A DNA stretch of 39,586 nucleotides from a virus, in IMG/VR virus record IMGVR_UViG_3300045303_000111, positions 1 through 39,586 of that record. One strand, given 5' to 3'. A program made the translations under genes and the position numbers. Below are positions 14,685 through 39,586 of this stretch, piece after piece; the stretch's first letter is position 1, and the number at the start of each line of letters is the position of its first letter. Below the pieces are notes generated by a model that was not told where the DNA came from, did not search any database, and saw only the letters and a list, made by a program, of their open reading frames with translations.

Positions 14685-14724
14685 TGGCTACATGGCTACG
14701 TGGCTACGTGGCTATATGTCTATC
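14685..14724. repeat. Five tandem 8-bp repeats before the capsid promoter
   Basis: Units TGGCTACA, TGGCTACG, TGGCTACG, TGGCTATA, TGTCTATC run without gaps just upstream of the capsid promoter -35 and into the stop of the scaffold gene. This may be a binding array for an activator or polymerase, or a slippage-generated microsatellite. It does not form a hairpin. Confidence 0.6.
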
Positions 14725-15847
14725 TGGCCTGCCCGTTGCCCCGCCTGGCGGCCAGCAATGCGGCGGCGGTGCGGATGTTGGTCCGTTCCTCGAAAGCCTG
14801 CTGCGCCTGCTGAATGCGTTCGGTGGGTGCCGGCGGCGGCGGCGCTCCCCGGACTGGTGCCTGTAGCCGCTGCGGCGGGGCGCTGCTTCTGGCGCCGGAT
14901 ACCATGTTGTCATACATGGCCGCTTTCATCATGGTCATCAGATGGTGCGGGCTGGCCAAGCCCCTCAACTCATCCTTGCTGAAGCCGCCCTTGGTGGTCG
15001 CCCAGTCCACGATCTCCTGCTGCAACTGGGCGCGTTCCCTCGGATCGGCCCAGCCGTCGATTTCCTTGGCAAGCTGCTCATTGGCCGCCGCAACCTGCTG
15101 CTCCATGGCGCGGTTGGCCGCCTGCTGCTGCAACTGGGTCAGGTTCCCCAGCCGCTGCTGCTCCTCCATCGCGGCCTCATAGACGGCGCGTTCCTGCACG
15201 TAGCGGCCGGGATCGGTATTGGCGAGCGTGGCGTCCGGCCGTGGCGGCGCCTGCTGGACGATCTGGGCGAGGCGGGCCAGTTCCGGCTGGATATATGGCA
15301 GCACGGTTGCCAGGGCTTCCTGCTGCGCCTGAAGCTGGCGGCGGCCTTCGGAGAGTTCCTGCGTCTTCTTGGTCCAATCGGCGGTTTTGCGCTGCACGAA
15401 ATCGCGCACTTCATCGAGCGTCTTGAGCCGCTGATTGTCGATCTCCATGATGGCGCCATCGGCGGGCGCGGCTTCTGGTGTGGAACCTGGGGGTTGCACG
15501 CCAAGCGCGCGTTCCAGGGCGGAGGCTGCGGCCGGTGCGGGCGGTTTCGTGGTCGCGTTATCATTTGTCGCCGCCCGGTTATCATTTGTTGCCGCCGCCT
15601 TGGCCGCCGCTGCTGCCATTTCGTTGGGCGAGGGGCGGCGGACCTCGGCCGCTGGGGCTGCCGGTTCCGCGCCTTCGGTCCCTGCCGTCCTCCGCTGCTT
15701 GCCGAGGAGCCGCGCGGCATCGCTGACGGAAATGGCGGGCTGCGAGGTGGCGGGCGGGGCGCTGGGGGGCGTAATCCCGAGCTGGCCGGTGGGTGCTGCG
15801 GCTGGTGCCGTTGCCGGTGCGGCGGGCGTGCCTGTGGTTTCGCTCAT
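14720..15847 (-). CDS. Scaffolding-like protein
   Basis: 375 aa. The ATG at 15847 overlaps the upstream stop (ATGA). N-terminal about 130 residues are Pro/Ala-rich and disordered; residues about 150-300 form helices/coiled coil (TADWTKKTQELSEGRRQLQA; QLQQQAANRAMEQQVAAANE). The C-terminus ends in a basic helix (RTNIRTAAALLAARRGNGQA). Position between portal and capsid, low complexity, central coiled coil and basic C-terminal helix are what scaffolding proteins show; the basic helix usually contacts the coat. No maturation protease gene is visible nearby, so proteolysis of the scaffold cannot be claimed. Confidence 0.65.
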   Translation of the reverse strand: MSETTGTPAAPATAPAAAPTGQLGITPPSAPPATSQPAISVSDAARLLGKQRRTAGTEGAEPAAPAAEVRRPSPNEMAAAAAKAAATNDNRAATNDNATTKPPAPAAASALERALGVQPPGSTPEAAPADGAIMEIDNQRLKTLDEVRDFVQRKTADWTKKTQELSEGRRQLQAQQEALATVLPYIQPELARLAQIVQQAPPRPDATLANTDPGRYVQERAVYEAAMEEQQRLGNLTQLQQQAANRAMEQQVAAANEQLAKEIDGWADPRERAQLQQEIVDWATTKGGFSKDELRGLASPHHLMTMMKAAMYDNMVSGARSSAPPQRLQAPVRGAPPPPAPTERIQQAQQAFEERTNIRTAAALLAARRGNGQAR

Positions 15848-16533
15848 TGGGTGTTGTCCTGTTGTCGGCCGAATGCCGTGGCGGCGCCGCCTGCCATCAG
15901 CCCGGCAATGCCGTATTTGCGAAGCCATTCAGACGGAAGAAACAGATTGTTTGTTTTCCCGGCCTCGTCCATGGCTTGATAAAATCGGTCTGCCTCGGCG
16001 GCCCGTTTTGGGTCGATCAGGTCGTGCTGTAGCGCATACTTAAACGCCGCTGGCCTTGGCATCCAACGGCCCACCGCGTTAATGAATCCCAATTCACTGT
16101 CAGGCAGAGATGCCATATCTGGATGTTCACGCTGGATCGCCAAATGGTCCGCACCTGTAACCACCTGATCGCCGCGTCGCATCGCCGCTGTAAGTTTCGG
16201 TATTATTGCCCCAGGCGTTCCCTTGATGCTGCCCAGCAATCCGCCCGCCAGCCCCACGTCAGCCGGCCCCAACCCCCCGGCAATCACCTGCGCCTGCTGC
16301 TTCCAGCCCTCGGGGGTGCGTTCCCCGGTGGTCGGGTCCACATACCCCTGGTCAATCTGCCGCTGCCGGTCGCGGGCGAGGAACGCCTGGTATTCGCGCG
16401 CCGTCGCATCGGCCGCATCGGCGGCGCTTGGCTGCGGCGCGATGGTATCCCGCCAATCGCCGGACGGAATGGCGAGCAAGCCTTGCGCGCCCGGCTGTTG
16501 CTGCGGATCATCGGGGAACAGCAGGCTGGCCAT
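15844..16533 (-). CDS. Unknown head-region protein
   Basis: 229 aa. The beginning (MASLLFPDDPQQQPGAQGLL) and first half are polar, then a Gly-rich segment (AQVIAGGLGPADVGLAGGLL) and a helical half (DSELGFINAVGRWMPRPAAF; EADRFYQAMDEAGKTNNLFL). It ends with a short Gly/Ala segment (GIAGLMAGGAATAFG) like that of the putative ejection proteins. Upstream genes are the 16536-17036 protein and the portal. It could be an internal head protein; no family was recognised. Confidence 0.6.
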   Translation of the reverse strand: MASLLFPDDPQQQPGAQGLLAIPSGDWRDTIAPQPSAADAADATAREYQAFLARDRQRQIDQGYVDPTTGERTPEGWKQQAQVIAGGLGPADVGLAGGLLGSIKGTPGAIIPKLTAAMRRGDQVVTGADHLAIQREHPDMASLPDSELGFINAVGRWMPRPAAFKYALQHDLIDPKRAAEADRFYQAMDEAGKTNNLFLPSEWLRKYGIAGLMAGGAATAFGRQQDNTQ

Positions 16534-20221: not shown

Positions 20222-21672
20222 ACATAGTCCCCCGCTGTAAGGTCCATGCGGACAGGGTTGCTGTCGTGCAGCCCCGAGGTCATGCCGCTGGCAATGCCAA
20301 GCCCCTGTTCCGCAAACGTGTGTATGAGGGCGTCGGCGCTGTCCGGGCTGGCCAGGCTGCGCGCCCGCATGGAATTCTTTGATTCCACCTGCAACCGACC
20401 ATCGCTCAGGAACGCATAGCGCGGCGCCACCAGGTCATCCCGCAACTGATCATCCCGCGGCAGCCGCACCGCACGGCTCTCCAGCCACTCCCGCGTGCGG
20501 ATCCATAGCTCATCGCGCAGCCGGGCAAACCGCCCCGTGGTGCTCGCAGCTTCCCCCACATTCACCCCCAGCACCGGCAGGTTCTGCTCATGAAGGCGGT
20601 CCACCACCCCCGCGCCAATGCCGATAACATCGATCACGATCAGCGCAGGCCGGCTGGTCAATGCGCTGTCGTATTCAGCCTTCAGCGCACCCGCCAACTG
20701 CATCGTGTCGAACTGGCGCCAGCGCCGCGGCATCTCGGTCACCACATTCCCGCGTCGCTTGATGAGCACGGACGCATCGCTGCCGAACCGCGCCACATCG
20801 ACGCCCCATATCTCCACCGCAGTCGGGTCCAGCGCCACGTCCCGCCGCATGGCATCGTCAACCAATGACGCCGGGATCACCGTATCCGCATCGGCCACCG
20901 GGAACTCACCCAGCACCCGGATGCGATACGCATTGCTGTCCAGGCCATAGCGCGTGGCAATCTCAGTCACGAACGCGGGCGCCACGCGGGGGCTATCCGC
21001 GCTGCTCACCTTCATGGTGAACCAGCGATCCCGCTCCATCATGTGCGCCCGCCAGAAGAAGCCGCTGCTGCGCGTGGGGTTTCCGATGAGCAGGGTGACA
21101 GCACCCGTGCTGCTCATGCTGCCGCCCGCAGCCTCATATACCGCCTCGTCAATGCCAGAGGCTTCGTCAGCGACAAGCAGAATGTGGTCACTGTGCAGGC
21201 CGGCCATGGCCTCGGGCTTATCCGGCCTGCTCGTCCGTGCGGTTATGAAGCACTCATCGTTGCCCTTGAGCGTGATGTGGTCCGAGGTGATGTTCCACAG
21301 GTCGCGCCAGGCTGACGGCAACAGGTTGAACCACTTCACGGTCTCGGGCCACAGGGCGTCGAACAATTGCGGTGCGGTCGGGGCTGTGACTGCGATCTTG
21401 AACGGTGTCCGGGTGTTGGCGAACCACAGCATTGCCCAGGCCGCGAGCGCAGTCTTGCCGACGCCATGGCCGCTGCGGATGGCAACACGGGTGTGCCCAC
21501 GCGCTATCGCCCGCAACGCCTCGATCTGCCACGGGTCAGGCTCCGCATGCAGCACCTCGCGAACGAACCCAATGGGCGCGCGGACGTAGCGCGTTGCTGC
21601 GGTGAGGAACGGGTTGGGCGATGCGGCAATGGCCTGCGCCCAGTCGCGCGGGGCGGTCTCGGTCTCGCTCAT
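20218..21672 (-). CDS. terL: Terminase large subunit
   Basis: 484 aa. ATPase half: Walker A GHGVGKT (residues 68-74), Walker B LLVADEASGID with catalytic Asp169-Glu170, and a TAPTAPQ motif near 97. Nuclease half: RNase H-like VDVARFGSD (Asp292) and IVIDVIGIGAG (Asp347), the usual acidic residues of the DNA-cutting domain. It uses ATP to pump DNA into the procapsid through the portal and cuts the concatemer. It starts with ATG at 21672 overlapping the methyltransferase stop. The likely small-subunit partner is the DUF5681 protein at 23169-23579, separated from it by a methyltransferase gene. Confidence 0.93.
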   Translation of the reverse strand: MSETETAPRDWAQAIAASPNPFLTAATRYVRAPIGFVREVLHAEPDPWQIEALRAIARGHTRVAIRSGHGVGKTALAAWAMLWFANTRTPFKIAVTAPTAPQLFDALWPETVKWFNLLPSAWRDLWNITSDHITLKGNDECFITARTSRPDKPEAMAGLHSDHILLVADEASGIDEAVYEAAGGSMSSTGAVTLLIGNPTRSSGFFWRAHMMERDRWFTMKVSSADSPRVAPAFVTEIATRYGLDSNAYRIRVLGEFPVADADTVIPASLVDDAMRRDVALDPTAVEIWGVDVARFGSDASVLIKRRGNVVTEMPRRWRQFDTMQLAGALKAEYDSALTSRPALIVIDVIGIGAGVVDRLHEQNLPVLGVNVGEAASTTGRFARLRDELWIRTREWLESRAVRLPRDDQLRDDLVAPRYAFLSDGRLQVESKNSMRARSLASPDSADALIHTFAEQGLGIASGMTSGLHDSNPVRMDLTAGDYV

Positions 21673-23042
21673 GTGCCGTGGCCCGCGAATAGGTCCGCCA
21701 TGTGCGTGTCAGCGGGATCCTCGGCCGGCGGCCATGACGTGAACAGCGGCGCGTCGGCCACGCAGCGCGCCATGGCCAGCTCGGTATATGCCGGGTTCAG
21801 CTCTATCCCGATGGCGTTGCGTTGCAGCCGGTCGGCGACCAGCAGCGTGGTGCCGGCGCCCGCGAACGGGTCGAGGACGGTGCATGGCACGACCGGGGCA
21901 TCGCAGCGGCAGCCCGGCGCCCAGCCGGTGGTGGTGGCAGTGGGCGGTTCCAGCATGGTGCCGCTGCTTCGCGTCCTGCCCATCGAGTGCGTGCGCTCGC
22001 TGCGGTCAATGACCATAGCCGTGCGTTCCGTCTGCCGCCCCCACGGCGCCCCGCACTGGCCGCAGCATCCCCTGTCCGATGTGCCCGCCTTGATGCAGCG
22101 TTCGGCGAGGGCGGGCGGAAACGTGGCGAAATGCGCGGCGCTGTATGCGTGCGTGGCAAGCGTCCAGACGTTGCGGAGGTTGCGCCCAGACGATGGATCG
22201 CCGCCGCTTACGGTGGCCGATGGCGTATTGCCGGGACTGCCGCCAGCACGCCGCAGAACGCCATTGGCATTGCTCCACTCACGCCGCCCGTATTCCGCCT
22301 CTTCCCGCACAGCATCCGCATCGTAATAATACGTCGCGCGCTTGGTGAGCAGGAACACATGCTCATGGGCGCTGGTGGGGCGATCTGTGACGCTCTCGGG
22401 CATCGGGTTGGGCTTGTGCCAGATGATGTCCGAGCGCAGCCACCAGCCGTCCGCCTGGAGGGCGAGCGCCAGCCGCGCCGGCATCATCAGTAGATCCTTG
22501 GGCTTGTAGCCTGGGGCGGAACACTTGGCTTGCAACAGCGTGCCTCTGGCCGCTTCCAGCTTCGTCTTGCCGCCATCCACAAAGCCATGCCCGCCGTCGC
22601 GCTTCTCGCCACCGCCGTTCCAGTAGCTATCCCCCATGTTGACCCAGCATGTGCCGTCGTCGCGCAGCACGCGGCGGACCTCGCGGAACACGGCGACCAT
22701 GGTGGCCAGGTATTCGTCCGGCGTGGCCTCTAGCCCGATCTGGCGGTCGATGCGCGTGGCGCCGCATGAGCAGACGCGCCCTGTGGCATCGCCCTGGTTC
22801 ACATAGCGCCCGCTGTTGCGGAAGGCGTTGCCATCAGCGTTGCGCTCGCCCACGTCGGCGCTGTGCCCGTGGTTCTTGCGGCCCGAGTGATCGCACCCCG
22901 CATCGCCGCCTTCCCACTGCGCGGTGCCGTAATCCCGCAGGCCGTAGTATGGCGGCGAGGTCACCACGCACTGGACGCTGGCGGCGGGCAACGTGCCCAG
23001 CACGTCGCGGCAGTCGCCTGGCATGATGCGGATGCCGCTCAT
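21669..23042 (-). CDS. DNA methyltransferase (beta-type N4C/N6A), larger paralogue
   Basis: 457 aa. Motif IV TSPPYYG at residues 28-34 comes before the SAM-binding DPFAGAGTT at about 391-399, the order of beta-class amino-methyltransferases; TSPPY fits N4-cytosine or N6-adenine transfer. It carries cysteine-rich insertions (CSCGATR; CCGQCGAPWG; CRCDA) that may bind zinc. Large blocks match the second methyltransferase at 25601-26527 (for example KPNPMPESVTDRPTSAHEHV), so the two are paralogues. No restriction enzyme is adjacent, so it is probably protective or regulatory. The residues after about 440 (THMADLFAGHGT) are a short extension. Confidence 0.88.
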   Translation of the reverse strand: MSGIRIMPGDCRDVLGTLPAASVQCVVTSPPYYGLRDYGTAQWEGGDAGCDHSGRKNHGHSADVGERNADGNAFRNSGRYVNQGDATGRVCSCGATRIDRQIGLEATPDEYLATMVAVFREVRRVLRDDGTCWVNMGDSYWNGGGEKRDGGHGFVDGGKTKLEAARGTLLQAKCSAPGYKPKDLLMMPARLALALQADGWWLRSDIIWHKPNPMPESVTDRPTSAHEHVFLLTKRATYYYDADAVREEAEYGRREWSNANGVLRRAGGSPGNTPSATVSGGDPSSGRNLRNVWTLATHAYSAAHFATFPPALAERCIKAGTSDRGCCGQCGAPWGRQTERTAMVIDRSERTHSMGRTRSSGTMLEPPTATTTGWAPGCRCDAPVVPCTVLDPFAGAGTTLLVADRLQRNAIGIELNPAYTELAMARCVADAPLFTSWPPAEDPADTHMADLFAGHGT

Positions 23043-23168: not shown

Positions 23169-23579
23169 TCATTCGCTCGGCGGCGGCGCGTTCAGATCGA
23201 ATGCGGCTTGACCGTTCGTGTCGCCTTCGTGTTGTATCGTTGGCGGAAGCGGTTGTTCGGCGCGCTCGGCGAGGAGCTGTTTGCCGACGAACTGCGTTGC
23301 GAGAAGATGCAATGAGATCGGCGAGTTGCCATCGGGAGTTGCTAGTGTCTGTAAGGGTTTTCCCCAACCGCGATCGAGGATGATGCTGGCTGCCGAGACG
23401 CGAGCGCCAGCGGGTTCCTTCTCGTTCTGCATGATCCTGGCGAGCGTATTCATGGCGACGGGCGTGAGGTTTCGCGCCAGTGCGATGACATCGACGGATG
23501 GCTTTGGCCTTCCGCGAGGATTGCCAGTCTGTCCGGGCTTCCAGGGAGAGAGATGTTGAACGCCCAAGTGCTTTACCAA
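23169..23579 (-). CDS. DUF5681-like protein, candidate terminase small subunit
   Basis: 136 aa with a TTG start at 23579 (another TTG, at 23567, is equally possible). WKPGQTGNPRGRPKPSVDVI is the DUF5681 signature, followed by helices (ALARNLTPVAMNTLARIMQN; AGARVSAASIILDRGWGKPL) ending in the common ILDRGWGKP. Proteins with this domain are found beside terminase large subunits and are taken as DNA-recognition small subunits. Residues about 95-136 are variable and disordered. Preceded by a 128-bp gene-free region with a DnaA box and tandem 13-mers. Confidence 0.7.
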   Translation of the reverse strand: MVKHLGVQHLSPWKPGQTGNPRGRPKPSVDVIALARNLTPVAMNTLARIMQNEKEPAGARVSAASIILDRGWGKPLQTLATPDGNSPISLHLLATQFVGKQLLAERAEQPLPPTIQHEGDTNGQAAFDLNAPPPSE

Positions 23580-24307: not shown

Positions 24308-24762
24308 GACGGCAGCCCATGCGCGTCGGCATGGCAGTTGGCGCACAGGACGACGAGATCGTCCTCAAGCTCGCGGCCGAGGTTTTCGTAGGTCAGGTGA
24401 TGGACCTCAAGGCGATAGCTGGAACAGCACCGATGGCATTGGCGTCCTGCTCTGAGCAGAGCGCGTTGTCGGGTGATCTTCCAGTGGCGGCTTAGAAGAT
24501 ATTGCGGGTAGGGCAACTGCCGCAGTTCGGCGCTGTCGTCCCAGGTGCGGGCGTATGCCTTGGTTGCCGAGGTGTATGCCAGGCTGGATGGTTCGTCTTC
24601 GGCCCATTGCTGCTGGTGTGCCCAGTCGCCGGCCGTGTAGGCGATGTCACGGCAACCGTCGTCCTCGTCGTCCTGATATTCCCACTCCTCGCGAACCGGG
24701 CTTAGGAACTCCTCCACATCGTCGGATTGGTGTTCCCAATATTGGCGTTGTCGGTTGCTCAT
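24304..24762 (-). CDS. HNH endonuclease
   Basis: 152 aa. Acidic N-terminal 100 residues (WEHQSDDVEEFLSPVREEWE; GDWAHQQQWAEDEPSSLAYT), then a typical HNH domain: CHRCCSSYRLEVHHLTYENL, GRELEDDLVVLCANCHADAH, with CxxC pairs and HH...N...H residues. HNH proteins near terminase genes can assist packaging-site cleavage, but here it is separated from terminase by GcrA and others. It overlaps both neighbours by 4 bases, so it belongs to the operon and was not recently inserted. Confidence 0.85.
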   Translation of the reverse strand: MSNRQRQYWEHQSDDVEEFLSPVREEWEYQDDEDDGCRDIAYTAGDWAHQQQWAEDEPSSLAYTSATKAYARTWDDSAELRQLPYPQYLLSRHWKITRQRALLRAGRQCHRCCSSYRLEVHHLTYENLGRELEDDLVVLCANCHADAHGLPS

Positions 24763-25604
24763 GCTGCCACCTGCCAGCGTTTGGCGGCGCTTTCGGCGAG
24801 GGCGGCACGGGCAGCAAGCACGCCGGCTGCGAGGCGCGGGTCGAGTTTGAGTTCTGCCGGGGGTGGTGGTGGGCCTTGGGTTGCTGCGAGTTGCTGGTCC
24901 ACCGAATTAGCCGGGTATTTGGTGGCCAGCCGCTTAGGGTTTCGTAGCCTCACCGCCCGCAGTGCCGCAGCGTATGCCTGCTGCGCCGCCTCTGGGTCAG
25001 CCTTGGGTTCGTCGGTGGTGAAGGTCGGATCGTAGGCTGGTGGGGCTGGGGGCGGCTCGCTTGCTGGCTGGCTTGCTTCCTTCCCCCCCGAATCTAGATT
25101 CTGCGCCTTGGCTTCGGGCGCGCACGCGCCTCTTTCTAGGTTCTCTTTCTTGGTTAAGTAAGGTTCGTCCCTCTCGTTTGCGGGGGTTTTGGCCCTCATT
25201 TGCGGGGGTTCGGCAGGCGATTTGAGGGGGTCGGCATGGCTGACCACCCCACCGTTTGCGGGGGCACCCCTATCTGATTTGCGGGGGCTGTGGATAACTT
25301 TACCGTTGGGCTTGGCTACCCCCTCATCATTTGCGGGGGCGTGCTCGCGCAGGATATGATATTTTGTAACAATACCAGGGCTTTGATCAAGCCGGATCAA
25401 CTTGCGCTCAACCAGCTTGCGGATCACCGCCGCAATCGTGTTCAGCGCCAGCCCCGTATAGCCGCGGATCGTCTCCTGGCCTGGAAAGCAAAACCGCTCC
25501 CCGTTGGCCTTGTCGGCCAAGTAAATCAGCACCAGCCGCTCGGCCGGCGACAACCCCAGCGCACGCCCACGCTCAAGCGCCCACGCAAATGATGGAATGC
25601 TCAT
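24759..25604 (-). CDS. Winged-helix replication-initiator-like protein carrying iterons in its gene
   Basis: 281 aa. Residues 1-90 are a helix-turn-helix/winged-helix domain of the phage O/HTH_36 type: LGLSPAERLVLIYLADKANG, FPGQETIRGYTGLALNTIAA, VIRKLVERKLIRLDQS. A Pro/Ala/Asn linker (about 90-160) contains repeated PAN/PPQ/PRK tripeptides produced by a DNA repeat that occurs in all three frames. The C-terminal third is helical, ending LAAGVLAARAALAESAAKRW. Like lambda O it probably binds iterons inside its own gene and recruits host helicase; the phage has no helicase or polymerase of its own. Confidence 0.75.
   Translation of the reverse strand: MSIPSFAWALERGRALGLSPAERLVLIYLADKANGERFCFPGQETIRGYTGLALNTIAAVIRKLVERKLIRLDQSPGIVTKYHILREHAPANDEGVAKPNGKVIHSPRKSDRGAPANGGVVSHADPLKSPAEPPQMRAKTPANERDEPYLTKKENLERGACAPEAKAQNLDSGGKEASQPASEPPPAPPAYDPTFTTDEPKADPEAAQQAYAAALRAVRLRNPKRLATKYPANSVDQQLAATQGPPPPPAELKLDPRLAAGVLAARAALAESAAKRWQVAA
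25177..25339 (+). other. Predicted replication origin: six TTTGCGGGGG iterons
   Basis: TTTGCGGGGG at 25177, 25199, 25255, 25278 and 25330, with a variant TTTGAGGGGG at 25221; start-to-start spacing 22, 22, 34, 23 and 52 bases. The first three and the pair at 25255/25278 keep about two helical turns. On the coding strand the repeat encodes P-A-N, P-P-Q and P-R-K in different frames, so the DNA and not the protein is conserved. A perfect DnaA box (25289-25297) lies against the fifth copy and an AT-rich stretch (25350-25378) follows. The layout parallels ori inside lambda O. Confidence 0.7.
25289..25297 (-). promoter_or_regulatory. Perfect DnaA box within the iteron cluster
   Basis: TGTGGATAA on the plus strand (TTATCCACA on the minus) starts one base after iteron five. 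Together with the iterons it suggests that host DnaA and the phage initiator act together. Confidence 0.65.
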
Positions 25605-26527
25605 GACAGCACCTCCGCGAACAGTGGTGCGTCGGCAACCACGCGGTCCCGTGCCATGCCGCCATACTCCGCGTTGATCTCGATCAGCACCGCGTTACGC
25701 CCCAGCCGATCCGCTACCAGCCCCGTCGTCCCCGCGCCACCGAACGGATCGAGCACCGTCCCGCCTGCCGGGCATCCCGCCTTGATGCAGCGTTCCGCAA
25801 GGTCGGGCGGCATGGTTGCGAAGTGGCTGCCGGGGAATGGCGCGGTCGCGATGTTCCAGACATTGCGCGCGTTGCGGGTTTCGCTGCCGGTGAACACGAA
25901 CCCAACGCTGTGCTGCTGGCGGTCTTCCCACGACGATCCGCCGAACCTGTCCGCCCGCACCCGGTCGGGCTGTTCCGCAGGCTCGCGCACCGCCTCTGCG
26001 TCATAGAAATACCGGGGAGATTTGGTCAGCAGAAAGACGTGTTCGTGTGCGCTGGTGGGCCGATCGGTGACGCTCTCAGGCATCGGGTTGGGCTTGGCCC
26101 AGATGATATCTGATCGCAGATACCAGCCGTCCGCGCGCAACGCGAAGGCGACCATCCACGGAATGCCGATCAGGTCTTTGTCCTTGAGATCCCCGCCCAT
26201 GCGCGGCGGCCGGTTTGCCCGCTTGCCGTCCGCCAGGGAGCCGGTGCCGATGACGTTGCGCCGATTGCACGGCCAGTTGCTGGCATACGTATCGCCCAGG
26301 TTGAGCCACAGCGTCCCGTCGTCCCGCAGCGCCCTGCGGACCTCGCGGAACACCGCCACCATCTCGGCGACATACTCGGCGGGCGTCGATTCGAGGCCGA
26401 TCTGCCCGGCCTCGCCATAGTCCCGCAGGCCGAAATACGGCGGCGAGGTCACCACGCAATGAATGCTGTTTTCCGCCAATGTCGGCAGAATTGCACGGCA
26501 GTCGCCGTGGATCACACGTATGGTCAT
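25601..26527 (-). CDS. DNA methyltransferase (beta-type N4C/N6A), smaller paralogue
   Basis: 308 aa from the ATG at 26527, with GAGGGG 7 bases upstream; a GTG two codons earlier is less likely because the ATG overlaps the previous stop. Motif IV TSPPYFG (residues 28-34) precedes the SAM motif DPFGGAGTTG (about 260). Shares long blocks with 21669-23042 but lacks its Cys-rich insertions. Target base and site cannot be read; TSPPY fits adenine N6 or cytosine N4. Placed upstream of the initiator gene, it could methylate the iteron region or protect the phage from host restriction. Confidence 0.87.
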   Translation of the reverse strand: MTIRVIHGDCRAILPTLAENSIHCVVTSPPYFGLRDYGEAGQIGLESTPAEYVAEMVAVFREVRRALRDDGTLWLNLGDTYASNWPCNRRNVIGTGSLADGKRANRPPRMGGDLKDKDLIGIPWMVAFALRADGWYLRSDIIWAKPNPMPESVTDRPTSAHEHVFLLTKSPRYFYDAEAVREPAEQPDRVRADRFGGSSWEDRQQHSVGFVFTGSETRNARNVWNIATAPFPGSHFATMPPDLAERCIKAGCPAGGTVLDPFGGAGTTGLVADRLGRNAVLIEINAEYGGMARDRVVADAPLFAEVLS

Positions 26528-26709
26528 AGGCACACCCCTCTTGCTTCGGCCGAGGGCATGTGCAAAATGGGGACAGCGACTTCGCCCATTTGCTGCACAG
26601 CCCGCAGCCGATTGGTTTCCTGTTCAGCACCCTCCGCGCTTCCAACGCGGGGGGTGTTCTCGTTGCGGGTGGTATATTGCGGCACGAATCCGCGTCCGTC
26701 CACGCTCAT
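26524..26709 (-). CDS. 61-residue polar protein, unknown
   Basis: MSVDGRGFVPQYTTRNENTP, then AEGAEQETNRLRAVQQMGEV and VAVPILHMPSAEARGVCL. Its ATG overlaps the previous stop and its TGA overlaps the methyltransferase ATG (both ATGA), which is the main support. Soluble, no recognised domain. Confidence 0.6.
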   Translation of the reverse strand: MSVDGRGFVPQYTTRNENTPRVGSAEGAEQETNRLRAVQQMGEVAVPILHMPSAEARGVCL

Positions 26710-31438: not shown

Positions 31439-32149
31439 ATGCCGCTGGATCAAGTCACCAAAGCCAAACGCGCGCGCATTCCGGCACTGACCACCGCCGA
31501 GATCATCGCGCTCGGCAAGGACGCCGCCGCGCCGCCCAAGGAAATCATCCGCATCACCCGGCCGAAAATGCGCGAGGCGGTGATCGGCATCGTCGGCATC
31601 GCCCCCTACGTGCAGCACGCTTTCAGCGAAAAGCAGCGCAAGCAAATGGAGGAAACGCAACGGGCCGGGCAGCAGGCGCGGGGGAAAAAGAACCGCCAAC
31701 CCAAAGATTTCGACGCGGTGTATGAGGCGGCAAAACACGTCAGCCAGGAGGGCTGGCTTGGCATTCCGGCGCCTGCCTTCCGCAACGCCATGATCAGCGC
31801 CTGCAAGCTGGTCGGCATCGTCATGACGCGGGCGAAGCTGTCGGTCTTCGTGGAGGCGGACGGGATCGACAAGAACGACGGCACGCCCCTGGTCAGGATT
31901 ATCGGCGAGCCGCGCATTCACCAGGCGACGGTGCGGAACGAGACCGGGGTCGCCGACATTCGCTGGCGCCCGATGTGGGAGAAATGGTCGGCGAACGTCA
32001 AAGTCACATGGGACGAGGACCAATTTAGCGCGACTGATGTAATGAATCTGATGTTGCGAGCCGGGATGCAGGTCGGGATTGGGGAAGGGCGGCCGGATTC
32101 GCCAAATTCCAATGGCTTAGGCTGGGGTCGTTTCGAGATCGTGGAGTAG
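31439..32149 (+). CDS. Conserved phage protein near recombination genes, unknown
   Basis: 236 aa, AAGGA before the ATG. Recognisable layout: IVGIAPYVQHAFSEKQRKQM, GIPAPAFRNAMISACKLVGI, then RPMWEKWSANVKVTWDEDQF, MNLMLRAGMQVGIGEGRP and GWGRFEI. This combination (PYVxHxF / PAxAFRxAxxxA / RxxWxxW / AGxxVGIGExRP / GxGRFxI) is widespread in phages next to ERF or RecT genes. Its function is unknown; it has a strand-helix pattern that could be a RAMP-like or ssDNA-binding fold, which I regard as speculation. Confidence 0.7.
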   Translation: MPLDQVTKAKRARIPALTTAEIIALGKDAAAPPKEIIRITRPKMREAVIGIVGIAPYVQHAFSEKQRKQMEETQRAGQQARGKKNRQPKDFDAVYEAAKHVSQEGWLGIPAPAFRNAMISACKLVGIVMTRAKLSVFVEADGIDKNDGTPLVRIIGEPRIHQATVRNETGVADIRWRPMWEKWSANVKVTWDEDQFSATDVMNLMLRAGMQVGIGEGRPDSPNSNGLGWGRFEIVE

Positions 32150-32601
32150 GCATGGCAGGCGTGGCCGGGCACGTCCTGCGGTGGCCACGCACGGCAGGCA
32201 GGGCAGGCGTGGGACGGCTAGGCGCGGAATGGCTCGGATTGGCAGGCATGGCCGCGCAAGTCCGGACTTGGCATGGACAGGCAGGGACAGGCTGGGCAGG
32301 CGTGGCTAGGCGTGTCGGGGCCGGCAACGGCCCGGCATGGCAGGCAGGGATTGCCTGGGGCGGGCATGACGCGCCGGGGCATGTCCGGGATCGGCTTGGC
32401 AGGCGTGGCTGGGGGTGACGCGGCCCGACAGGGAGCGGCACGGCGCGGCAGGACTGGCACGGCCCGGCCCGGCGGGACGAGGCGAGACCCGGCCCGGCTG
32501 GGGAAGGCAGGGACTGGCACGGCAGGCGCGGAATGCCAAGGCTGCGCCCGGAATGTCTGGGCAACGCAGGGCAGGCATGGAACTAGCAACAGGAGGCAGA
32601 C
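32150..32601 (+). repeat. G-rich low-complexity tract with GGCAGGCRTGG repeats
   Basis: 452 bases without a credible gene. GGCAGGCRTGG occurs six times (32154, 32202, 32241, 32295, 32398, 32570) among many looser GGCAGG, GGCACGG and GGCATGG variants. Frames here code only low-complexity Gly/Ala/Arg/Pro sequence. A clean ribosome site (GGAGG) for the next gene follows at its end. Purpose unknown. Confidence 0.7.
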
Positions 32602-33048
32602 ATGAGCGACAGAACCGACAGCATCGCAGCAGAACTGCTGGCGCTGCGAAACGGCAACGGCGTGATCAACCCGGCCGAGGCCGTGGCATGGGCCAAACGC
32701 AACCCAAAAAGTCGGCTGCATGAGACGTTGGAATGGGATGACGATATTGCCGGCGAACGGTGGCGCGTGTGGCAGGTTCGCCAGATGATCTCCATCCATA
32801 TCGTGGACGCGGACGGCGGGCGCCGGTTCGTGTCGCTGTCCATTGACCGCAAGCATGACGGGTCCAACGGCTACCGCCCGCTGGACGAGGTAATGGGGCG
32901 GCCCGACCTGCGTGAGATCATGATGACCGACGCGCTGCACGATCTGGAGCGGGTGCAGCACCGCTATCAGAAGCTGACCGAGTTGCAGGAGGTCTGGGCG
33001 GCGGCTGACAAGGCGCGCGCCCGGCGCAAGACGAAGGCTGCGGCATAG
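32602..33048 (+). CDS. Conserved phage protein, unknown
   Basis: 148 aa with GGAGG before the ATG. MSDRTDSIAAELLALRNGNG, VINPAEAVAWAKRNPKSRLH, then LEWDDDIAGERWRVWQVRQM, a phage pattern (NGNGxxxPxxVVxxA...SxLHxxFEWDDxxAAxxYRxWQARxLI) seen in early regions of many phages. A helical lysine/arginine-rich C-terminus follows (VWAAADKARARRKTKAAA). It is isolated between two repeat tracts. Function unknown. Confidence 0.7.
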   Translation: MSDRTDSIAAELLALRNGNGVINPAEAVAWAKRNPKSRLHETLEWDDDIAGERWRVWQVRQMISIHIVDADGGRRFVSLSIDRKHDGSNGYRPLDEVMGRPDLREIMMTDALHDLERVQHRYQKLTELQEVWAAADKARARRKTKAAA

Positions 33049-33430
33049 GCAGGGCAGGCTCGGCGGGGCGGAGATCGGCGGGACGGGGCAGGCTTGGATC
33101 GGATCGGACGGTCAGGGTGCGGCACGGACCCGCTCGGCAGGCTGGGCGCCGCGGGGCCAGGTTGGGCGTCGTAGGGGCGGCGGGGACAGGCAACGCCTGG
33201 CAGGCATGGATGGGTTAGGCCCGCCACGATCCGGCAGGGCACGGCAAGGGCGCGGCTTGGCAGGCTCGGCAGGGCAACGCCTCGCTTGGAGCGCGGCGGC
33301 GCGGCACGGACGGGCAGGCGTGGACCGTCCAGGCGGGGATTGTCCGGTTTCGGCACGGCTTGGCAGGCATGGAGGGCGACGGATTGGCGTGGCGTGGCCG
33401 GGCTTGGTTCGGCGGGCATTGCGTTGATAT
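33049..33430 (+). repeat. Second G-rich low-complexity tract
   Basis: GGCAGGCRTGG at 33199, 33313 and 33362 among many degenerate copies, matching the tract at 32150-32601. No open frame here has normal composition. The two tracts flank 32602-33048. Confidence 0.65.
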
Positions 33431-33576
33431 CGCCCGCCATCCCCCGCGAGATTGAAGCAACGCGCCCCGTTTGCGTCGCTACCCGGACGATCGGCGGAAA
33501 TTGCCGGAAATGCCGTGGGAGGTGCCGCAAGCTGCCGCAGAGGTGCCGGAATTGCCGCGCCGTCCGCCTTGGACAC

Positions 33577-34365: not shown

Positions 34366-34443
34366 GTGCTCACCATATTAGTCCTGTTCCTGCTCGTCTG
34401 CATCGTCTTCGCCGCCTGTAGCAAAGGGTTCCCCTTCTATTAG
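34366..34443 (+). CDS. 25-residue lipoprotein-like peptide
   Basis: GTG start, AAAGGT 5 bases before. MLTILVLFLLVCIVFAAC then SKGFPFY: a hydrophobic segment followed by a lipobox-like FAAC-S. If processed it would leave only eight residues anchored in a membrane, like the smallest lysis or entericidin-type lipoproteins. Its TAG overlaps the stop of the large minus-strand gene (34440-36827) by 3 bases. There is no adjacent spanin partner. Confidence 0.45.
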   Translation: MLTILVLFLLVCIVFAACSKGFPFY

Positions 34444-36827
34444 GGCTGGTTCTGATCGGGCGTGAATAGCTGCGAGCCAAGCAATCCACCGCCCTTATAG
34501 AGCGGGGCCGCCGCCCGCTGGGCGCCCGGCAACCACGATAGATAAGGGTGGTTCGGGTCATTCAGCGAGGACGGGCCACGCGGCAGGCTGACGCCGAGAT
34601 CCGCCGCCGTGTTGGCGCCGCCGACCGCGCGCTGCACGATTTCCGATCCCCGCTGCGTGGCGCCCTGCGCCGCCATGGTCGGCTTGACCTCGGACAGAAT
34701 GGGACCGATCCACGGCGTCTTCTTGAGAACCGTGCCGACAGTATAACCGCTGCCCGAGGGATTGAGCCGCTGGCCGCCCGCCCGGCTGCCAACGCCAAGC
34801 GCGATCAGCGCCTGCCGGTAGTCGGCTAATTGCTTTTGCATTTCCGCCGGCAGCAGTGTCCGGCTGACATCCGCCCCGCCGCCTTGGACCTGATCGCCAA
34901 TGCGCCCCGCGGCACTGTTGAAATCGAACCTGGGCGCTCCCGTATCGGCGATCTCAGTGGCTGCATCCTTGCCGTAAAGCGTCCGCAGCGTCAGCGCGCC
35001 CGCCAATGGCTGCCTGACCTCATCGCCCAGGTGGAACTGCAAATGCGAAAGCGCGGCGTTGGTGCCGCCGCCAGGAGTGACCGTCCCGGCACCGCTGCCG
35101 AATATCGAGTTGACCGTCTCTTGCCCCGTATGCGGCGCGGCTGGATTGGTCACGCCCGCGATCAACCGCTCGGCCGCCGGATTATCGCGCGGCTCGATGA
35201 AGTTATACTTCGCCCGCGTTGCCGCATTGGCGTCTCGGAAATCGGTGAGCGTCTGGGGGTTCCCTGCCATCCGGCCCGGCGTCGTCTCGGCAGCGGTAAT
35301 CGCATCATCCAGCGCCCGCTTCATCTGGGCAGCGGCGGCGGCGGCTGGCGTGCCAGGTTTGTCGCTGATGACATTGCCAAGCATCTGCCGCATGTCCTGC
35401 AAATGCCCGAGATTGAACCCCTGCATCGAGCCAGGCGTGCCGCCCGGCCCCGTTGGCAGCATAACGCGACGCAACTGCTGGAACGCATCGACCGCCAGTT
35501 GCCCGGTATCGCCGAGCTGGGCTGCCGAATAATTGCCTCCTGGTCCCTGCGGGGCACCGTAGAACCGCCGCATCACGTCGGCCGATTTGGCCAGCACATC
35601 GGTCGAGACATCGGGCGAGAACACCACGCCGCGCCCGGCGGCAGTGTCAGGCGAAACATCGCCCAGCTTCGCCCATGCAGCCTTCTCGGTATCGGTCAGA
35701 TCCTTGACCCGACCGGCAATGCTCGCGTTAACCTTGTCGCCATACCCGCTCGCAGTCGGCTGGAAGTTGTCAGGGGCCGATGTGCCAGGCGCGACCTCGC
35801 CGCTGGCGTTGCCGATAAGCGTGCGCTTGTTCAGAAGGTGTTGCTCGGCATTGCTGTCGTTCAGTCCCTTCAAATGCGTCCGCGCCGCGTCCGAAGACGA
35901 TCCCGAATTTGCCAGGAAGTCCTCATAAGCAACCTTGGTGGGGTCGGCCGTGACAGTGCCCTCAGTCGGATTGAAGCCCCAGCGGTAAAGCGTCCGCGCC
36001 CGGTTCGCGATGTCCTCGGCGGTGCCGATGACCGGACGGCTCACCCTGTCAATGACCTTCAGGCCGGCATATCCAAGCCCCGATAGCCCGGCGGGCAGCA
36101 GGGTGGATATCGCCGTGCCGAGCGCATCGAACGGCTTGTTCTCACCGCCGAGCAGATAGCTGCCCGCCTGCGACAGCGCGTGCTGCGCCCCGCCCGCGCC
36201 CATTTGCCGCAGCAGCGACGTGCCTCCTGACTCTATCGCCGCCGCCGTCTGCCCGCCATAGAACAGTCCCTTCTGCGCGTTGAAGCCGGGCCGATCGAGA
36301 TACATCTTCGGCCCGCCGGGAACCTGCACGGTCAGACGTGCGCCAGGCGCCGGATGCCCCTCGGCATCGAGGTCGTCATAGGCGATCTGTGCGTTTGGAA
36401 TACGCGACTTGATGGCATTGCCAAGGGCTGTCTCGTTGGGCGACAGCGCCATGTTGCCGACGATGCCCCACGCCTTCGGGTCGAGAACACCGAGGCCGAG
36501 GCCGGGCATGTCAACCGGTCCATATTCGGGATGCCGCACCGAATCGTTCCCGGTGAATAGGTCCACAGCAGCGGCACGGCCAGCGGCACGCCGGTTCGAA
36601 CGATCCACCAGCTTCGACCCTGATGGCTCAACCGGAACGGGGTCGCCCTTTCCGGTCCCGCCGATGGTCGTATAGGACGTGCCCAGAATGCTAGTGGGTG
36701 TGCCGCCTGGGTCGAACCGCTCGCCAGTATCTGCGGGCGCCGCTTGGCCGCCGGGACCGAAGGATACGGAATTGCCGCCGGGGTCGAACCGCTCGGGCGC
36801 TGCCGGGGCGCTTGTGGTGGTCCCCAT
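34440..36827 (-). CDS. Large internal/ejection virion protein, last gene of late operon
   Basis: 795 aa. Gly/Ser/Pro-rich N-terminus (PERFDPGGNSVSFGPGGQAA) with a repeat of ERFDPGG. The central parts are helical (PFDALGTAISTLLPAGLSGL; LGHLQDMRQMLGNVISDKPG) and there are Gly-rich membrane-like stretches; ends GGGLLGSQLFTPDQNQP. The size, composition and place beside the transglycosylase-like protein match podovirus internal proteins that build a channel for DNA. No enzyme motif. ATG overlaps previous stop (TAATG); stop overlaps the convergent lipoprotein gene. Confidence 0.6.
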   Translation of the reverse strand: MGTTTSAPAAPERFDPGGNSVSFGPGGQAAPADTGERFDPGGTPTSILGTSYTTIGGTGKGDPVPVEPSGSKLVDRSNRRAAGRAAAVDLFTGNDSVRHPEYGPVDMPGLGLGVLDPKAWGIVGNMALSPNETALGNAIKSRIPNAQIAYDDLDAEGHPAPGARLTVQVPGGPKMYLDRPGFNAQKGLFYGGQTAAAIESGGTSLLRQMGAGGAQHALSQAGSYLLGGENKPFDALGTAISTLLPAGLSGLGYAGLKVIDRVSRPVIGTAEDIANRARTLYRWGFNPTEGTVTADPTKVAYEDFLANSGSSSDAARTHLKGLNDSNAEQHLLNKRTLIGNASGEVAPGTSAPDNFQPTASGYGDKVNASIAGRVKDLTDTEKAAWAKLGDVSPDTAAGRGVVFSPDVSTDVLAKSADVMRRFYGAPQGPGGNYSAAQLGDTGQLAVDAFQQLRRVMLPTGPGGTPGSMQGFNLGHLQDMRQMLGNVISDKPGTPAAAAAAQMKRALDDAITAAETTPGRMAGNPQTLTDFRDANAATRAKYNFIEPRDNPAAERLIAGVTNPAAPHTGQETVNSIFGSGAGTVTPGGGTNAALSHLQFHLGDEVRQPLAGALTLRTLYGKDAATEIADTGAPRFDFNSAAGRIGDQVQGGGADVSRTLLPAEMQKQLADYRQALIALGVGSRAGGQRLNPSGSGYTVGTVLKKTPWIGPILSEVKPTMAAQGATQRGSEIVQRAVGGANTAADLGVSLPRGPSSLNDPNHPYLSWLPGAQRAAAPLYKGGGLLGSQLFTPDQNQP

Positions 36828-39136
36828 TATCTATTCCCCCCGACCTCTATGGCAACTGGGGCTTTGACCGGTGCCATGCCGGGCGAATAGACGATTTCCA
36901 GGCCGCCGTTCGGCTTGCGGAACATCGTGCCGGGCCGGATGTTGTGTTCCTCGGCCCAGTCCTGGCGCTTTGCTTTCCATACGGGATCGGGGTCAAGCCA
37001 ATGGTCGGCGAGTTCCTGTGACCGCAACGGGACGATGGGATATTTCGTTTCTATCGTCTCGGCCGCCGTTTTCAGCGCCTCGGAAATAGGCTTGCCGTCA
37101 GCCGTCAGCTTGTTGACTTCGAGGTTATAGCGCATCTTCTGGTCTTGGGCCCGGCGCAGATACGAGATGACGGCGGCCCGCGTTTGCGGGTTCTCATACA
37201 CGTTCGGCGCCATGTTTTCGATGAAGTTCAAATCCCTATCCGACAGGTTGCCCATGGACATGCCCTGACGCAGCCGCGCGATGGCGTTGGATATGCCGCT
37301 CTGCAACAACTGAGTGGCGCCGGCTTCCCCTTTATCTACAATCCCTAACTGAGCCATGCGGTTCAGGATCGTGGTATCGCCAATCTTCAGTGTGGCAAAG
37401 ACACTCGGGTTTTTTACGTTGTTCGACAGCGCCAGCAATCCATCCAGTTCACTGACTGCGCCGCGAGATTCCACGGCCTCTTTGCCAAGCTGATCAATGA
37501 TCGTTTTCCGGCTGGCCAGATCAGAGGTTTCCCGGCTTTGCCGCGATACAATGTCGCCCTGCTGGGCTTGGTCGAACGCTTTGTTGTAAGCCTGGGTGGC
37601 AAGGTCGTAGCGGGTCTGGATCGCCTTTTGCTGGGCGTCGTCATACGTCGTAAGTTTTGCATCCGCAGCCGCGCGCTTGGCTTGAATCATGTTCTGGACG
37701 TCAGTGTTGAGCGCCGTCTGCTCTTTGTCCAGACCGCGCAACGCTTCGGGCTGGTTCTTGTCGGGCAAAGTCAGCCCGATCTTCTGGCGCTCGCGGTTAA
37801 GCCCCGCTTGCCTTTCGGCAAACGCCGCCTTTTGCGCGGGTGTGAGGTCGGGGTTGAAATCCTCAGTCTTAGGCGGCGGCACGTATTGCTGCTTGTAATA
37901 GTCGTTGAACTCGCCGGGATGCCGGATCATCAGATTGCCGACAGTGATGTCGGGATACGCGGGCGGCTTGGGAACGTCGGGCGCGGGTGGCACGGCTGGC
38001 CCTGCGGCAGCGGTGGTGACCTCATCCGCCGAGACGCCCCTTCCGGTGGGCGCGAGCGTGTCGGGATCTGCCCCGCGCGCGATCATGCCTTGCGCGATGG
38101 CATCAGCATTGCCAGCAGCGCCGGGGGAAGGCGGTGGTGCTACTGCATCAGGTGGGACACCGGGGCCGGCGAACTGCGCGCGGCCGGGCGACGGGGCTGC
38201 TTCTGCCGTTGAGCCGCCGCTCGCATCTGTCGCGGGAATGGGCTGACGTGCTGGCGGGGCATCTGCCGCCACTGGCGCTGCCGGGCGGCGTGAGTTCTTG
38301 TTCCCCTCCTGCACCGCCATCGCCGCCTGGACCTTGGCGCGGACGGCCGGATCGCGAATGTCGATCTTGGCATTGGGATCGATGCCGGTGGCCTTCGCCA
38401 CTGCGGCGATATAGCCGGGCGTGTCGTTCTCGCCAGGCGGCGCCCAGCGGCTAATAAGCCCGGATAGCGTGTTGATGCCGCCCTCGGCATACTTGCCGAA
38501 TAGTGCATCCGTCGCCGCCTGACCTTCCTCGGGCGTCTTCCATGCCGCGAAGCCATTGGTATTGACCGCGCCAGGTTGCCCGGCAAACCGGATATTCAGT
38601 GGATTGTTGAGGGCGAACGGAACATCGCCCGCCGCGCTGATGTCGGTGTTGCCCTGTCCGGAAAGCGCGCGCGCCGCCGCCGCCCGCTGCTGGTCTTGTA
38701 TCAAGGTCAGGATCGGCAGGGCTTCCTTGATGCGGGCGATTTTCATCTCTTGCTGCGATTGCGCGTATTCCTGCTGTGCCTGCCCGCGGGCCGCCGTCAG
38801 CGCCTCGGACTGGCCGAGCGATTGCTGCGCGGCACCGATGCCGCCGCCGATAAGCTGGCCGATCGTCGGGCGGTCGGTGCGATAACCGCTATTGGCCAGC
38901 AGGTTCAGCCCGAAATTGAGCAGCGCGCGGTTGCCCGAGGCGTCGGCTTCATCGGCTGAGACGGGGACCGCGCCCGAGGGTCCGCCGCCGAGGGCAGAGC
39001 CGAGTAATCCGGTGATCGAGGACGGCCGGGCGACCTGCGCGCGTGCGCCCGTAGGCGCCGGCGGCTGCGCCATTAGCTGCTGGTAGAGCTGCTGGTAATC
39101 AACCTGCGGGGCGGTCGTGGTGTCGGGCTCGGCCAT
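36827..39136 (-). CDS. Internal virion protein with transglycosylase-like domain
   Basis: 769 aa. Residues about 165-270 hold a phage peptidoglycan-degrading/lysozyme-like domain: FALNNPLNIRFAGQPGAVNT, GFAAWKTPEEGQAATDALFG, GGINTLSGLISRWAPPGEND, then TPGYIAAVAKATGIDPNAKI. The pattern NNPxNIR...G...WAP...DNTxxYxxxVAxxxGxxP is familiar from virion-associated lytic proteins that open the cell wall at infection. Long coiled-coil parts follow (FAERQAGLNRERQKIGLTLP; DAQQKAIQTRYDLATQAYNK). With no classical endolysin present, this may be the phage's only muralytic activity. Catalytic residues cannot be assigned from sequence alone. Confidence 0.7.
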   Translation of the reverse strand: MAEPDTTTAPQVDYQQLYQQLMAQPPAPTGARAQVARPSSITGLLGSALGGGPSGAVPVSADEADASGNRALLNFGLNLLANSGYRTDRPTIGQLIGGGIGAAQQSLGQSEALTAARGQAQQEYAQSQQEMKIARIKEALPILTLIQDQQRAAAARALSGQGNTDISAAGDVPFALNNPLNIRFAGQPGAVNTNGFAAWKTPEEGQAATDALFGKYAEGGINTLSGLISRWAPPGENDTPGYIAAVAKATGIDPNAKIDIRDPAVRAKVQAAMAVQEGNKNSRRPAAPVAADAPPARQPIPATDASGGSTAEAAPSPGRAQFAGPGVPPDAVAPPPSPGAAGNADAIAQGMIARGADPDTLAPTGRGVSADEVTTAAAGPAVPPAPDVPKPPAYPDITVGNLMIRHPGEFNDYYKQQYVPPPKTEDFNPDLTPAQKAAFAERQAGLNRERQKIGLTLPDKNQPEALRGLDKEQTALNTDVQNMIQAKRAAADAKLTTYDDAQQKAIQTRYDLATQAYNKAFDQAQQGDIVSRQSRETSDLASRKTIIDQLGKEAVESRGAVSELDGLLALSNNVKNPSVFATLKIGDTTILNRMAQLGIVDKGEAGATQLLQSGISNAIARLRQGMSMGNLSDRDLNFIENMAPNVYENPQTRAAVISYLRRAQDQKMRYNLEVNKLTADGKPISEALKTAAETIETKYPIVPLRSQELADHWLDPDPVWKAKRQDWAEEHNIRPGTMFRKPNGGLEIVYSPGMAPVKAPVAIEVGGNR

Positions 39137-39139
39137 GGT

Positions 39140-39460
39140 TCAGACCCCCAGTAAACCCTTGCTCGACCCGCCGCCGGGATAGAGCGCCTGGTAACGCTGG
39201 GCCAGAAGCTGCACCAGCGCAGCGAGCGGGGACGCGCCACCGCCGCCGCCGACAGCGGATTGCGCCGGGGACATCGCGCCCTGGCCCGACTGCCCGCCCG
39301 ATCCGCTGCCCTGCTGCGCGTTGGCGCCCTTGGAAAGCTCGCCGAGCGCCTTGGTGAGATTGGCGCCCCATGCCGGATCCTCGGTGTCGATGCCGGTGCT
39401 GGGACTGCCCGCACGGGCTGCCACATCGCTGCCCCGTGTATCGTAAGGATAGTCTGACAT
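39140..39460 (-). CDS. Small Gly/Ser-rich virion-region protein
   Basis: 106 aa. MSDYPYDTRGSDVAARAGSP, then a Gly/Gln/Ser-rich low-complexity middle and a helical C-terminus (ASPLAALVQLLAQRYQALYP). TAGGAG lies 7 bases before the ATG, in the overlap sequence. In the circular genome it follows the gene 28-1194 and precedes the transglycosylase-like protein. Likely a minor internal or ejection protein; no family known. Confidence 0.6.
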   Translation of the reverse strand: MSDYPYDTRGSDVAARAGSPSTGIDTEDPAWGANLTKALGELSKGANAQQGSGSGGQSGQGAMSPAQSAVGGGGGASPLAALVQLLAQRYQALYPGGGSSKGLLGV

Positions 39461-39586
39461 CAGAGTGCTCCTAGCGCCGTTTCATTTCACAAGGCGCCCA
39501 ATATGCCGCCCGCAACTGCACCGACAGGTGCGCCGACGCCGCCGAACGTCGCCCCGATCGCCGCCCCCGTGGCGGCCCCGCCGGCA
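39460..39586. repeat. Terminal direct repeat, right copy
   Basis: Identical to 1-127. It carries the end of the 28-1194 gene again, so 39487-39586 (minus strand) is a duplicate of that gene's 3' part, not an additional gene. Confidence 0.95.

What the first reader, a model, noticed from the sequence alone, without database searches (positions are those of the whole stretch)
32154..33372. Two G-rich repeat tracts (GGCAGGCRTGG) flank one conserved gene
Nine exact copies of GGCAGGCRTGG and many near copies fill two gene-free regions of about 450 and 380 bases on either side of 32602-33048. The density and strand bias of G are not explained by coding. Possibilities are a packaging or recombination (ERF) hot spot, a structured RNA, or a G-rich replication block.
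Basis: seen in the sequence. Interest (0 to 1): 0.6.

Follow-up and report, generated by a model that had tools for sequence, protein, structure and literature searches.

The report
Phage VIPR guide-RNA arrays (pentamer code)
The two G-rich repeat tracts are very probably guide-RNA arrays of a VIPR system, a recently described phage-encoded relative of CRISPR that reads DNA with gaps, and one guide here spells out the catalytic motif of the integrases of rival phages.

Summary
They flank the two genes of a VIPR locus (preprint PMC13142463, 2026). Gene 31439-32149 is a Vipr (RAMP fold, Csm3-like, VIA Z 11; 23% identical to SUSP1 Vipr). Gene 32602-33048 is a conserved partner (68 of 73 loci), a vap candidate unrelated to SUSP1 vap1. 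Of 68 non-redundant Vipr loci, 64 carry such a tract on the vipr strand, none on the other. Decoded with the published 1-nt-skip rule, unit 33317-33361 reads V-P-H-G-F-R-S-T-F. It matches exactly 63 viral contigs, all tyrosine integrases, skips at wobble positions; this phage has no PF00589 integrase. Unit 33263-33312 matches (20/20 in two contigs) a putative terminase-small-subunit gene; the phage's own homologue differs at 4 of 20 bases. Expression, RNP formation and repression are inferred. New member of a known kind; slip punctuation and targets are additions, though the paper's supplement on overlapping arrays could not be read.

The parts
31439..32149 (+). vipr: RAMP (Cas7/Csm3-like) protein, 236 aa, PHROG 4652
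   Evidence: phmmer hit to PDB 36pp SUSP1 Vipr, E 0.0058; BLASTP to SUSP1 Vipr 23% over residues 44-234, E 4e-9 for that single comparison; AlphaFold2 model pLDDT 73.5; of 45 PDB chains with Foldseek E<=0.001, 44 are type III/VII CRISPR RAMPs, best 3.3e-5; VIA Z 11.1, rmsd 3.2, 146 aligned, to Csm3 9g9f_D
32150..32601 (+). tract 1: vrRNA array, nine slip-to-slip units, starting at the vipr stop codon
32602..33048 (+). vap candidate (accessory protein), 148 aa, PHROG 15946, mostly helical
   Evidence: homologue in 68 of 73 loci examined; model pLDDT 94, no confident fold match; not similar to SUSP1 vap1; homologous to the second gene of Saal and Cy-LDV1
33049..33430 (+). tract 2: vrRNA array, starting at the vap stop codon
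33263..33312 (+). guide unit h5: TC-AG-AA-CT-TT-GC-GC-GC-AC-CG; antisense reading R-V-A-A-A-N-S-L-L-D-R; predicted target: putative terminase small subunit gene of other phages
   Evidence: 6 exact matches to its first 9 NN in viral contigs; L166 and L167 match 20/20; the L166 target gene lies just upstream of a terminase large subunit gene
33317..33361 (+). guide unit h6: GT-CC-CA-GG-TT-CG-TC-AC-TT; reads V-P-H-G-F-R-S-T-F, the motif around the HxxR catalytic box of tyrosine integrases
   Evidence: 63 exact matches in viral contigs, all in integrase genes with the skip at codon position 3
33366..33410 (+). guide unit h7: AT-GG-AC-TT-GT-GT-CG-TT-TC
   Evidence: no exact match in viral contigs
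32343..32397 (+). guide unit g6, shared (20 of 22 NN letters) with relative L019 5889; the only clearly shared unit
   Evidence: no exact match to its first 10 NN in viral contigs
32245..32294 (+). guide unit g4: AT-CG-AA-CG-TT-AT-CA-AG-CA-TG
   Evidence: one match in viral contigs with the skip at codon position 1, taken as chance
23169..23579 (-). the phage's own homologue of the h5 target gene; the homologous site at 23374-23403 matches h5 at only 16 of 20 bases
37242..37268 (+). site in this phage (inside gene 36827-39136, - strand) matched 17/18 by a guide of the close relative L063: possible target of a rival's vrRNA
   Evidence: suggestive only

Best explanation
The locus is a phage-encoded VIPR system. 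The operon is probably transcribed through vipr, tract 1, vap and tract 2. The tracts give vrRNAs in which GGC(Y) triplets are the Vipr-binding scaffold and the NN pairs between them are the guide. A 4-base repeat (GGCA|GGC) marks the end of one guide unit and the start of the next, with about 7-14 NN pairs per unit. Vipr would polymerise on a unit, about one protomer per pentamer, and the complex would bind double-stranded DNA at NNxNNxNN targets and block transcription of genes of competing phages or prophages. Because the skipped base falls on the wobble position, one guide can hit many synonymous versions of a conserved protein motif: unit h6 covers the tyrosine-integrase motif VPHGFRSTF, unit h5 the motif RVAAANSLLDR of a putative terminase small subunit. 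Shown here: genes, fold, arrays, linkage, guide-to-target matches. Inferred from the published SUSP1 and P. fulva systems: transcription, RNP formation, repression.
For: RAMP fold and Vipr homology. Pentamer arrays beside vipr: of 68 non-redundant loci 64 have a tract scoring at least 30 on the vipr strand, 0 on the other strand, 0 in shuffles. The logo of 497 slips shows fixed GGC every 5 bases with near-zero information at NN, and 440 of 484 slip separations are 5n+4. Partner gene in 68 of 73 loci. The h6 pattern has 63 exact matches in IMG/VR (57 distinct sites, 60 distinct proteins), all similar to tyrosine integrases; two other valid patterns with 18 fixed bases, h7 and g4, gave 0 and 1 matches. 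No PF00589 integrase in this phage. The h5 matches include 20/20 sites in the gene next to a terminase large subunit; the phage's own homologue has 4 mismatches. Published mechanism: PMC13142463.
Against: No transcript or RNP data. GGC fidelity in this window is lower than in many relatives (pentamers such as GTCCT occur), and some units (1, 6 or 7 NN) are shorter than the published 9-16 repeats. Two units of tract 2 have lengths that are not multiples of 5. Two of the five guides scanned in a valid register gave interpretable targets; a sixth scan used a wrong register and does not count. No separate structured 3' tail like that of SUSP1 was identified. The local target search over relatives gave only a small excess for the 1-nt skip over other skips and shuffles.
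Confidence: 0.95

Rival explanations
1. The tracts are a recombination, packaging or replication site (Erf annealing hot spot, pac/cos, or origin iterons).
For: An erf gene and a Gp157/Gam-like gene lie just upstream; G-biased directional repeats are typical of such sites in general.
Against: In relatives the tract goes with vipr, not erf: Cyanophage Cy-LDV1 has a Bet/Exo system at another place and Cheoctovirus mycophages carry it beside repressor and excisionase genes. NN is hypervariable while GGC is fixed, the reverse of a protein-binding site with one fixed sequence. It does not explain the integrase and terminase matches.
Confidence: 0.02
2. The tracts act as G-rich structure (G-quadruplex or R-loop) that blocks or starts replication.
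For: 46-47% G with strong strand bias.
Against: Runs are mostly GG at a spacing set to 5 with registered slips; neither quadruplexes nor R-loops need an exact 5-base register, a GGCA slip or a vipr neighbour.
Confidence: 0.015
3. It is a VIPR locus but decayed or inactive in this phage.
For: Imperfect GGY triplets and off-register units in tract 2.
Against: vipr and vap are intact open frames and the h5 and h6 guides match present-day phage genes exactly.
Confidence: 0.08

Closest known systems
VIPR of Escherichia phage SUSP1 (type II; PMC13142463, PDB 36pp)
   Same: RAMP-fold Vipr with detectable homology; sense-strand GGY/NN pentamer tracts next to vipr; small accessory gene; phage-borne; decodes by the 1-nt skip rule
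   Different: GGC rather than mostly GGT; continuous arrays with GGCA|GGC slips instead of separate ~100-nt vrRNAs with a structured tail; accessory gene not similar to vap1; tracts directly after the vipr and vap stop codons
VIPR-like loci of Cheoctovirus mycophages (Saal, BobaPhett, DRBy19) and Cyanophage Cy-LDV1
   Same: same two genes (35% and 55% identity for vipr) and GGC pentamer tracts with the same GGCA slip
   Different: in the mycophages the tract lies upstream of vipr and has cleaner GGC; annotated only as hypothetical proteins or nothing
Type III CRISPR-Cas backbone proteins (Csm3, Cas7)
   Same: fold of the protein (VIA Z about 11); an RNA-guided filament with periodic interruption of pairing is the assumed mode
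   Different: no CRISPR repeats and no other CRISPR RAMP or adaptation gene recognised in this module; variable NN in a fixed GGC frame instead of repeat plus contiguous spacer

Membership tests
VIPR system | Vipr protein: ancestral RAMP fold | tested here: met
   Foldseek and VIA matches to Csm3/Cas7 RAMPs
VIPR system | Sequence homology to a characterised Vipr | tested here: met
   only PDB match is SUSP1 Vipr, E 0.0058 phmmer, 0.0026 profile; pairwise E 4e-9 over residues 44-234
VIPR system | Glycine-rich loop and thumb for RNA binding | tested here: inconclusive
   GIGEGRPDSPNSNGLGWG is strongly conserved, but the loop (218-227) has pLDDT under 50
VIPR system | Tandem GGY/NN pentamers, NN hypervariable, beside vipr | tested here: met
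VIPR system | 9-16 repeats per vrRNA | tested here: inconclusive
   slip-to-slip units in the window mostly 7-14 NN, some shorter; 7-16 across relatives within the 35-80 base range counted, mode 9-10
VIPR system | vipr-accessory gene (vap) | tested here: met
VIPR system | Guides decode to phage or prophage genes with a 1-nt skip at codon wobble | tested here: met
   h6: 63 exact integrase sites; h5: 20/20 sites
VIPR system | Conserved structured 3' tail after the repeats (type II) | not tested
   no separate tail was seen by eye; units run on from slip to slip, but folding was not analysed and other types may differ
VIPR system | Expressed vrRNA bound by Vipr; repression of the target | not testable with these tools
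   needs experiment
Hammerhead-interspersed VIPR array | Hammerhead ribozymes in the array | tested here: inconclusive
   no Rfam family reaches its gathering score in the window; weaker copies not excluded
CRISPR-Cas | Fixed direct repeats separating contiguous spacers | tested here: not met
   period is 5 bases with variable NN throughout

The most novel reading that the evidence does not exclude
A VIPR array architecture in which 4-base phase slips (GGCA|GGC) punctuate continuous pentamer tracts and define each guide, used to aim at codon-degenerate invariants of competitor proteins (the tyrosine-integrase HxxR box). One short guide would then act against many unrelated prophages and satellites, and silent mutations could not provide escape.
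Probability: 0.5. Interest if true: 0.8.

Novelty: new member of a known kind. Interest (0 to 1): 0.62.

Why it matters
VIPR was described only in 2026. This locus gives a working reading of the arrays in a large family of phage VIPR loci: where one guide ends and the next begins, and what two guides target. The integrase guide is a clear natural example of the wobble-skipping code: 57 distinct DNA sites in 60 distinct integrases match one 18-letter guide. It makes a direct test simple: does this phage silence prophage integrases in general? It also annotates two hypothetical families (PHROG 4652 as Vipr, PHROG 15946 as its accessory protein) and explains G-rich tracts in well-studied mycobacteriophages.

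Tried and rejected
Coding origin of the tracts: mechanical ORFs exist, but the regularity is 5-based, not 3-based, so this was rejected. Rfam: no match. Pfam, NCBIfam and PADLOC: nothing for vipr or vap that names them. Fold of the vap: confident model but no PDB match above chance level. Host from bacterial genomes: only three contigs of binned metagenomes carry a Vipr relative, so the host is not settled; structural genes are nearest to Sinorhizobium phage phiM5 and other environmental phages and a Vipr relative lies on a phage-like Rhodoplanes plasmid, which suggests an alphaproteobacterial host. Exact scans for guides g6, g4 and h7 found nothing convincing. The scan used a mis-registered unit and is void. 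Target search among relatives: a weak excess for the 1-nt skip, not significant taken alone; most skip-3 hits are probably unmasked repeat tract. A taxon-wide genome search for the integrase guide could not be run, because no prokaryotic centre genome is available for this virus record.

Full report
OBSERVATION. They are the visible tip of a stricter pattern. The tracts repeat with period 5 (autocorrelation peaks at 5, 10, 15 and 20) as GGC followed by two variable bases. A chain score for GG anchors 5 bases apart is 101.5 and 90.5, against means of 9.5 and 10.4 and maxima of 26.5 and 27 for 1000 dinucleotide shuffles of each tract, and no more than 10 elsewhere in the window on either strand. 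Each GGCAGGC is a place where one repeat has 4 bases (GGCA) instead of 5. Cut at these slips, all nine units of tract 1 and four of six in tract 2 have lengths that are exact multiples of 5.

THE GENES. The gene before tract 1 (31439-32149, 236 aa, PHROG 4652) has a single hit among all PDB sequences: 36pp, 'SUSP1 Vipr protein' (E 0.0058 by phmmer, 0.0026 with a ten-sequence profile). BLASTP against the SUSP1 protein aligns residues 44-234 at 23% identity, E 4e-9 for that one comparison. An AlphaFold2 model (pLDDT 73.5) matches Csm3/Cas7 RAMP subunits: 44 of the 45 Foldseek hits at E 0.001 or better, VIA Z 11.1 over 146 residues for Csm3. The gene between the tracts (148 aa, PHROG 15946) has a homologue in 68 of 73 loci examined. 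It is well modelled (pLDDT 94) but has no confident fold match and is not similar to SUSP1 vap1.

THE SYSTEM. A 2026 preprint (PMC13142463) describes VIPR: phage-borne Vipr proteins with vrRNAs made of alternating GGY/NN, in which the NN pairs bind double-stranded DNA as NNxNNxNN (1-nt skip), often with the skipped base at codon wobble. The complex represses genes of competing phages. Some VIPR types are said to have staggered arrays with overlapping vrRNAs; the supplementary figures were not readable here. Genes, arrays and their order in this window fit that description.

LINKAGE IN RELATIVES. Two scans of viral contigs and annotated phages gave Vipr relatives in about 80 IMG/VR contigs, Cheoctovirus mycophages, Gordonia phages and Cyanophage Cy-LDV1. 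Of 68 non-redundant IMG/VR loci, 64 have a pentamer tract scoring at least 30 on the vipr strand; none has one on the other strand, and none of the shuffled controls does. A logo of 497 slips shows GGC fixed every fifth base, NN near zero information, and the GGCA|GGC slip; 440 of 484 slip separations are 5n+4, most often 49 or 54 bases. Guides turn over quickly: of the window's units, only g6 (32343-32397) is clearly shared with the relative L019 (20 of 22 NN letters), although their Vipr proteins are 90% identical.

TARGETS. Unit h6 (33317-33361) has the NN series GT-CC-CA-GG-TT-CG-TC-AC-TT. As NNxNNx it matches exactly 63 places in viral contigs. All 63 lie, with the skip at codon position 3, in genes similar to one of two tyrosine integrases from the set; one was confirmed by Pfam (PF00589 with its arm and central domains). 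The guide reads V-P-H-G-F-R-S-T-F, the motif around the catalytic HxxR. There are 57 distinct DNA sites and 60 distinct proteins. Two other valid guides scanned with 18 fixed bases gave 0 and 1 matches, and a 20-base pattern gave 0, so chance gives about one. The window phage has no PF00589 integrase and its best self-match to h6 is 13/18. Unit h5 (33263-33312) gave six exact matches over its first nine NN. In L163, L166 and L167 the antisense reading is ARVAAANSLLDRG, and L166 and L167 match 20/20. In L166 this gene lies just upstream of a terminase large subunit gene, which makes it a putative terminase small subunit. The window carries its own homologue (23169-23579, minus strand; 52% identical to L167 over 54 residues), where the homologous site has 4 mismatches of 20 and is the best self-match of h5 in the genome. 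That is what a guide aimed at rivals and sparing self should look like.

WEAKER LEADS. A guide of L019 matches the vap genes of rival loci L130 and L141 (16/18 and 17/18); one of L063 matches this window at 37242 (17/18); another matches a putative terminase-like motif in L107 (19/20); one of L059 matches a second integrase motif, WTIPAER. Taken over all guides, the local search shows only a small excess for the 1-nt skip, so these are leads, not proof.

MECHANISM. Shown: genes, fold, arrays, strand, slips, conservation, exact guide-target matches with wobble phasing for two units. Inferred from the published systems: transcription of the operon (both tracts begin at stop codons), one protomer per pentamer, DNA binding and repression. 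The role of the slip as guide boundary rests on three facts: units between slips are multiples of 5; the h5 and h6 target matches run from one slip to the next; and inspection of the h6 integrase sites shows no continuation past either slip.

VERDICT. A VIPR system (0.95). New member of a known kind, with array punctuation and targets that are not in the main text of the paper.

Noticed in passing
1-128 and 39459-39586: The first 128 bases are repeated exactly at the end, so the record is probably a complete circular or terminally redundant phage genome of about 39,458 bases.
   Followed up: partly
33495-33558: Imperfect repeats of about 10 and 21 bases (TGCCGGAAATGCCG...) just after tract 2; on the minus strand they carry GGCA about every 10 bases, but with no pentamer chain.
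   Followed up: no
25130-25212: Short tandem repeats (13 and 22 bases) inside the O-like replication gene 24759-25604, reminiscent of origin iterons within a replication initiator gene.
   Followed up: no
21669-23042 and 25601-26533: Two genes matching the same PHROG of DNA methyltransferases (phrog_67), one of them between the putative terminase small subunit and the terminase large subunit.
   Followed up: no
L004 3942-4189, L002 4012-4250, L001 3980-4190: Cheoctovirus mycophages carry a clean GGC pentamer tract with GGCA slips upstream of a vipr-vap pair annotated as hypothetical; in DRBy19 and BobaPhett part of the tract is annotated as a small gene (gp51).
   Followed up: partly
L232 5475-7973 (Rhodoplanes serenus plasmid NZ_LR026982.1): A phage-like plasmid with capsid and tape-measure genes carries a Vipr 59% identical to the window's, a possible phage-plasmid user of VIPR.
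   Followed up: partly
14685-14722: Microsatellite-like repeat TGGCTACA, 4.8 copies, at the end of gene 14720-15928.
   Followed up: no
34440-36827 and 36827-39136: Two large minus-strand genes; the second matches tape-measure and transglycosylase injection proteins in its N-terminal part, the first has no PHROG match.
   Followed up: no
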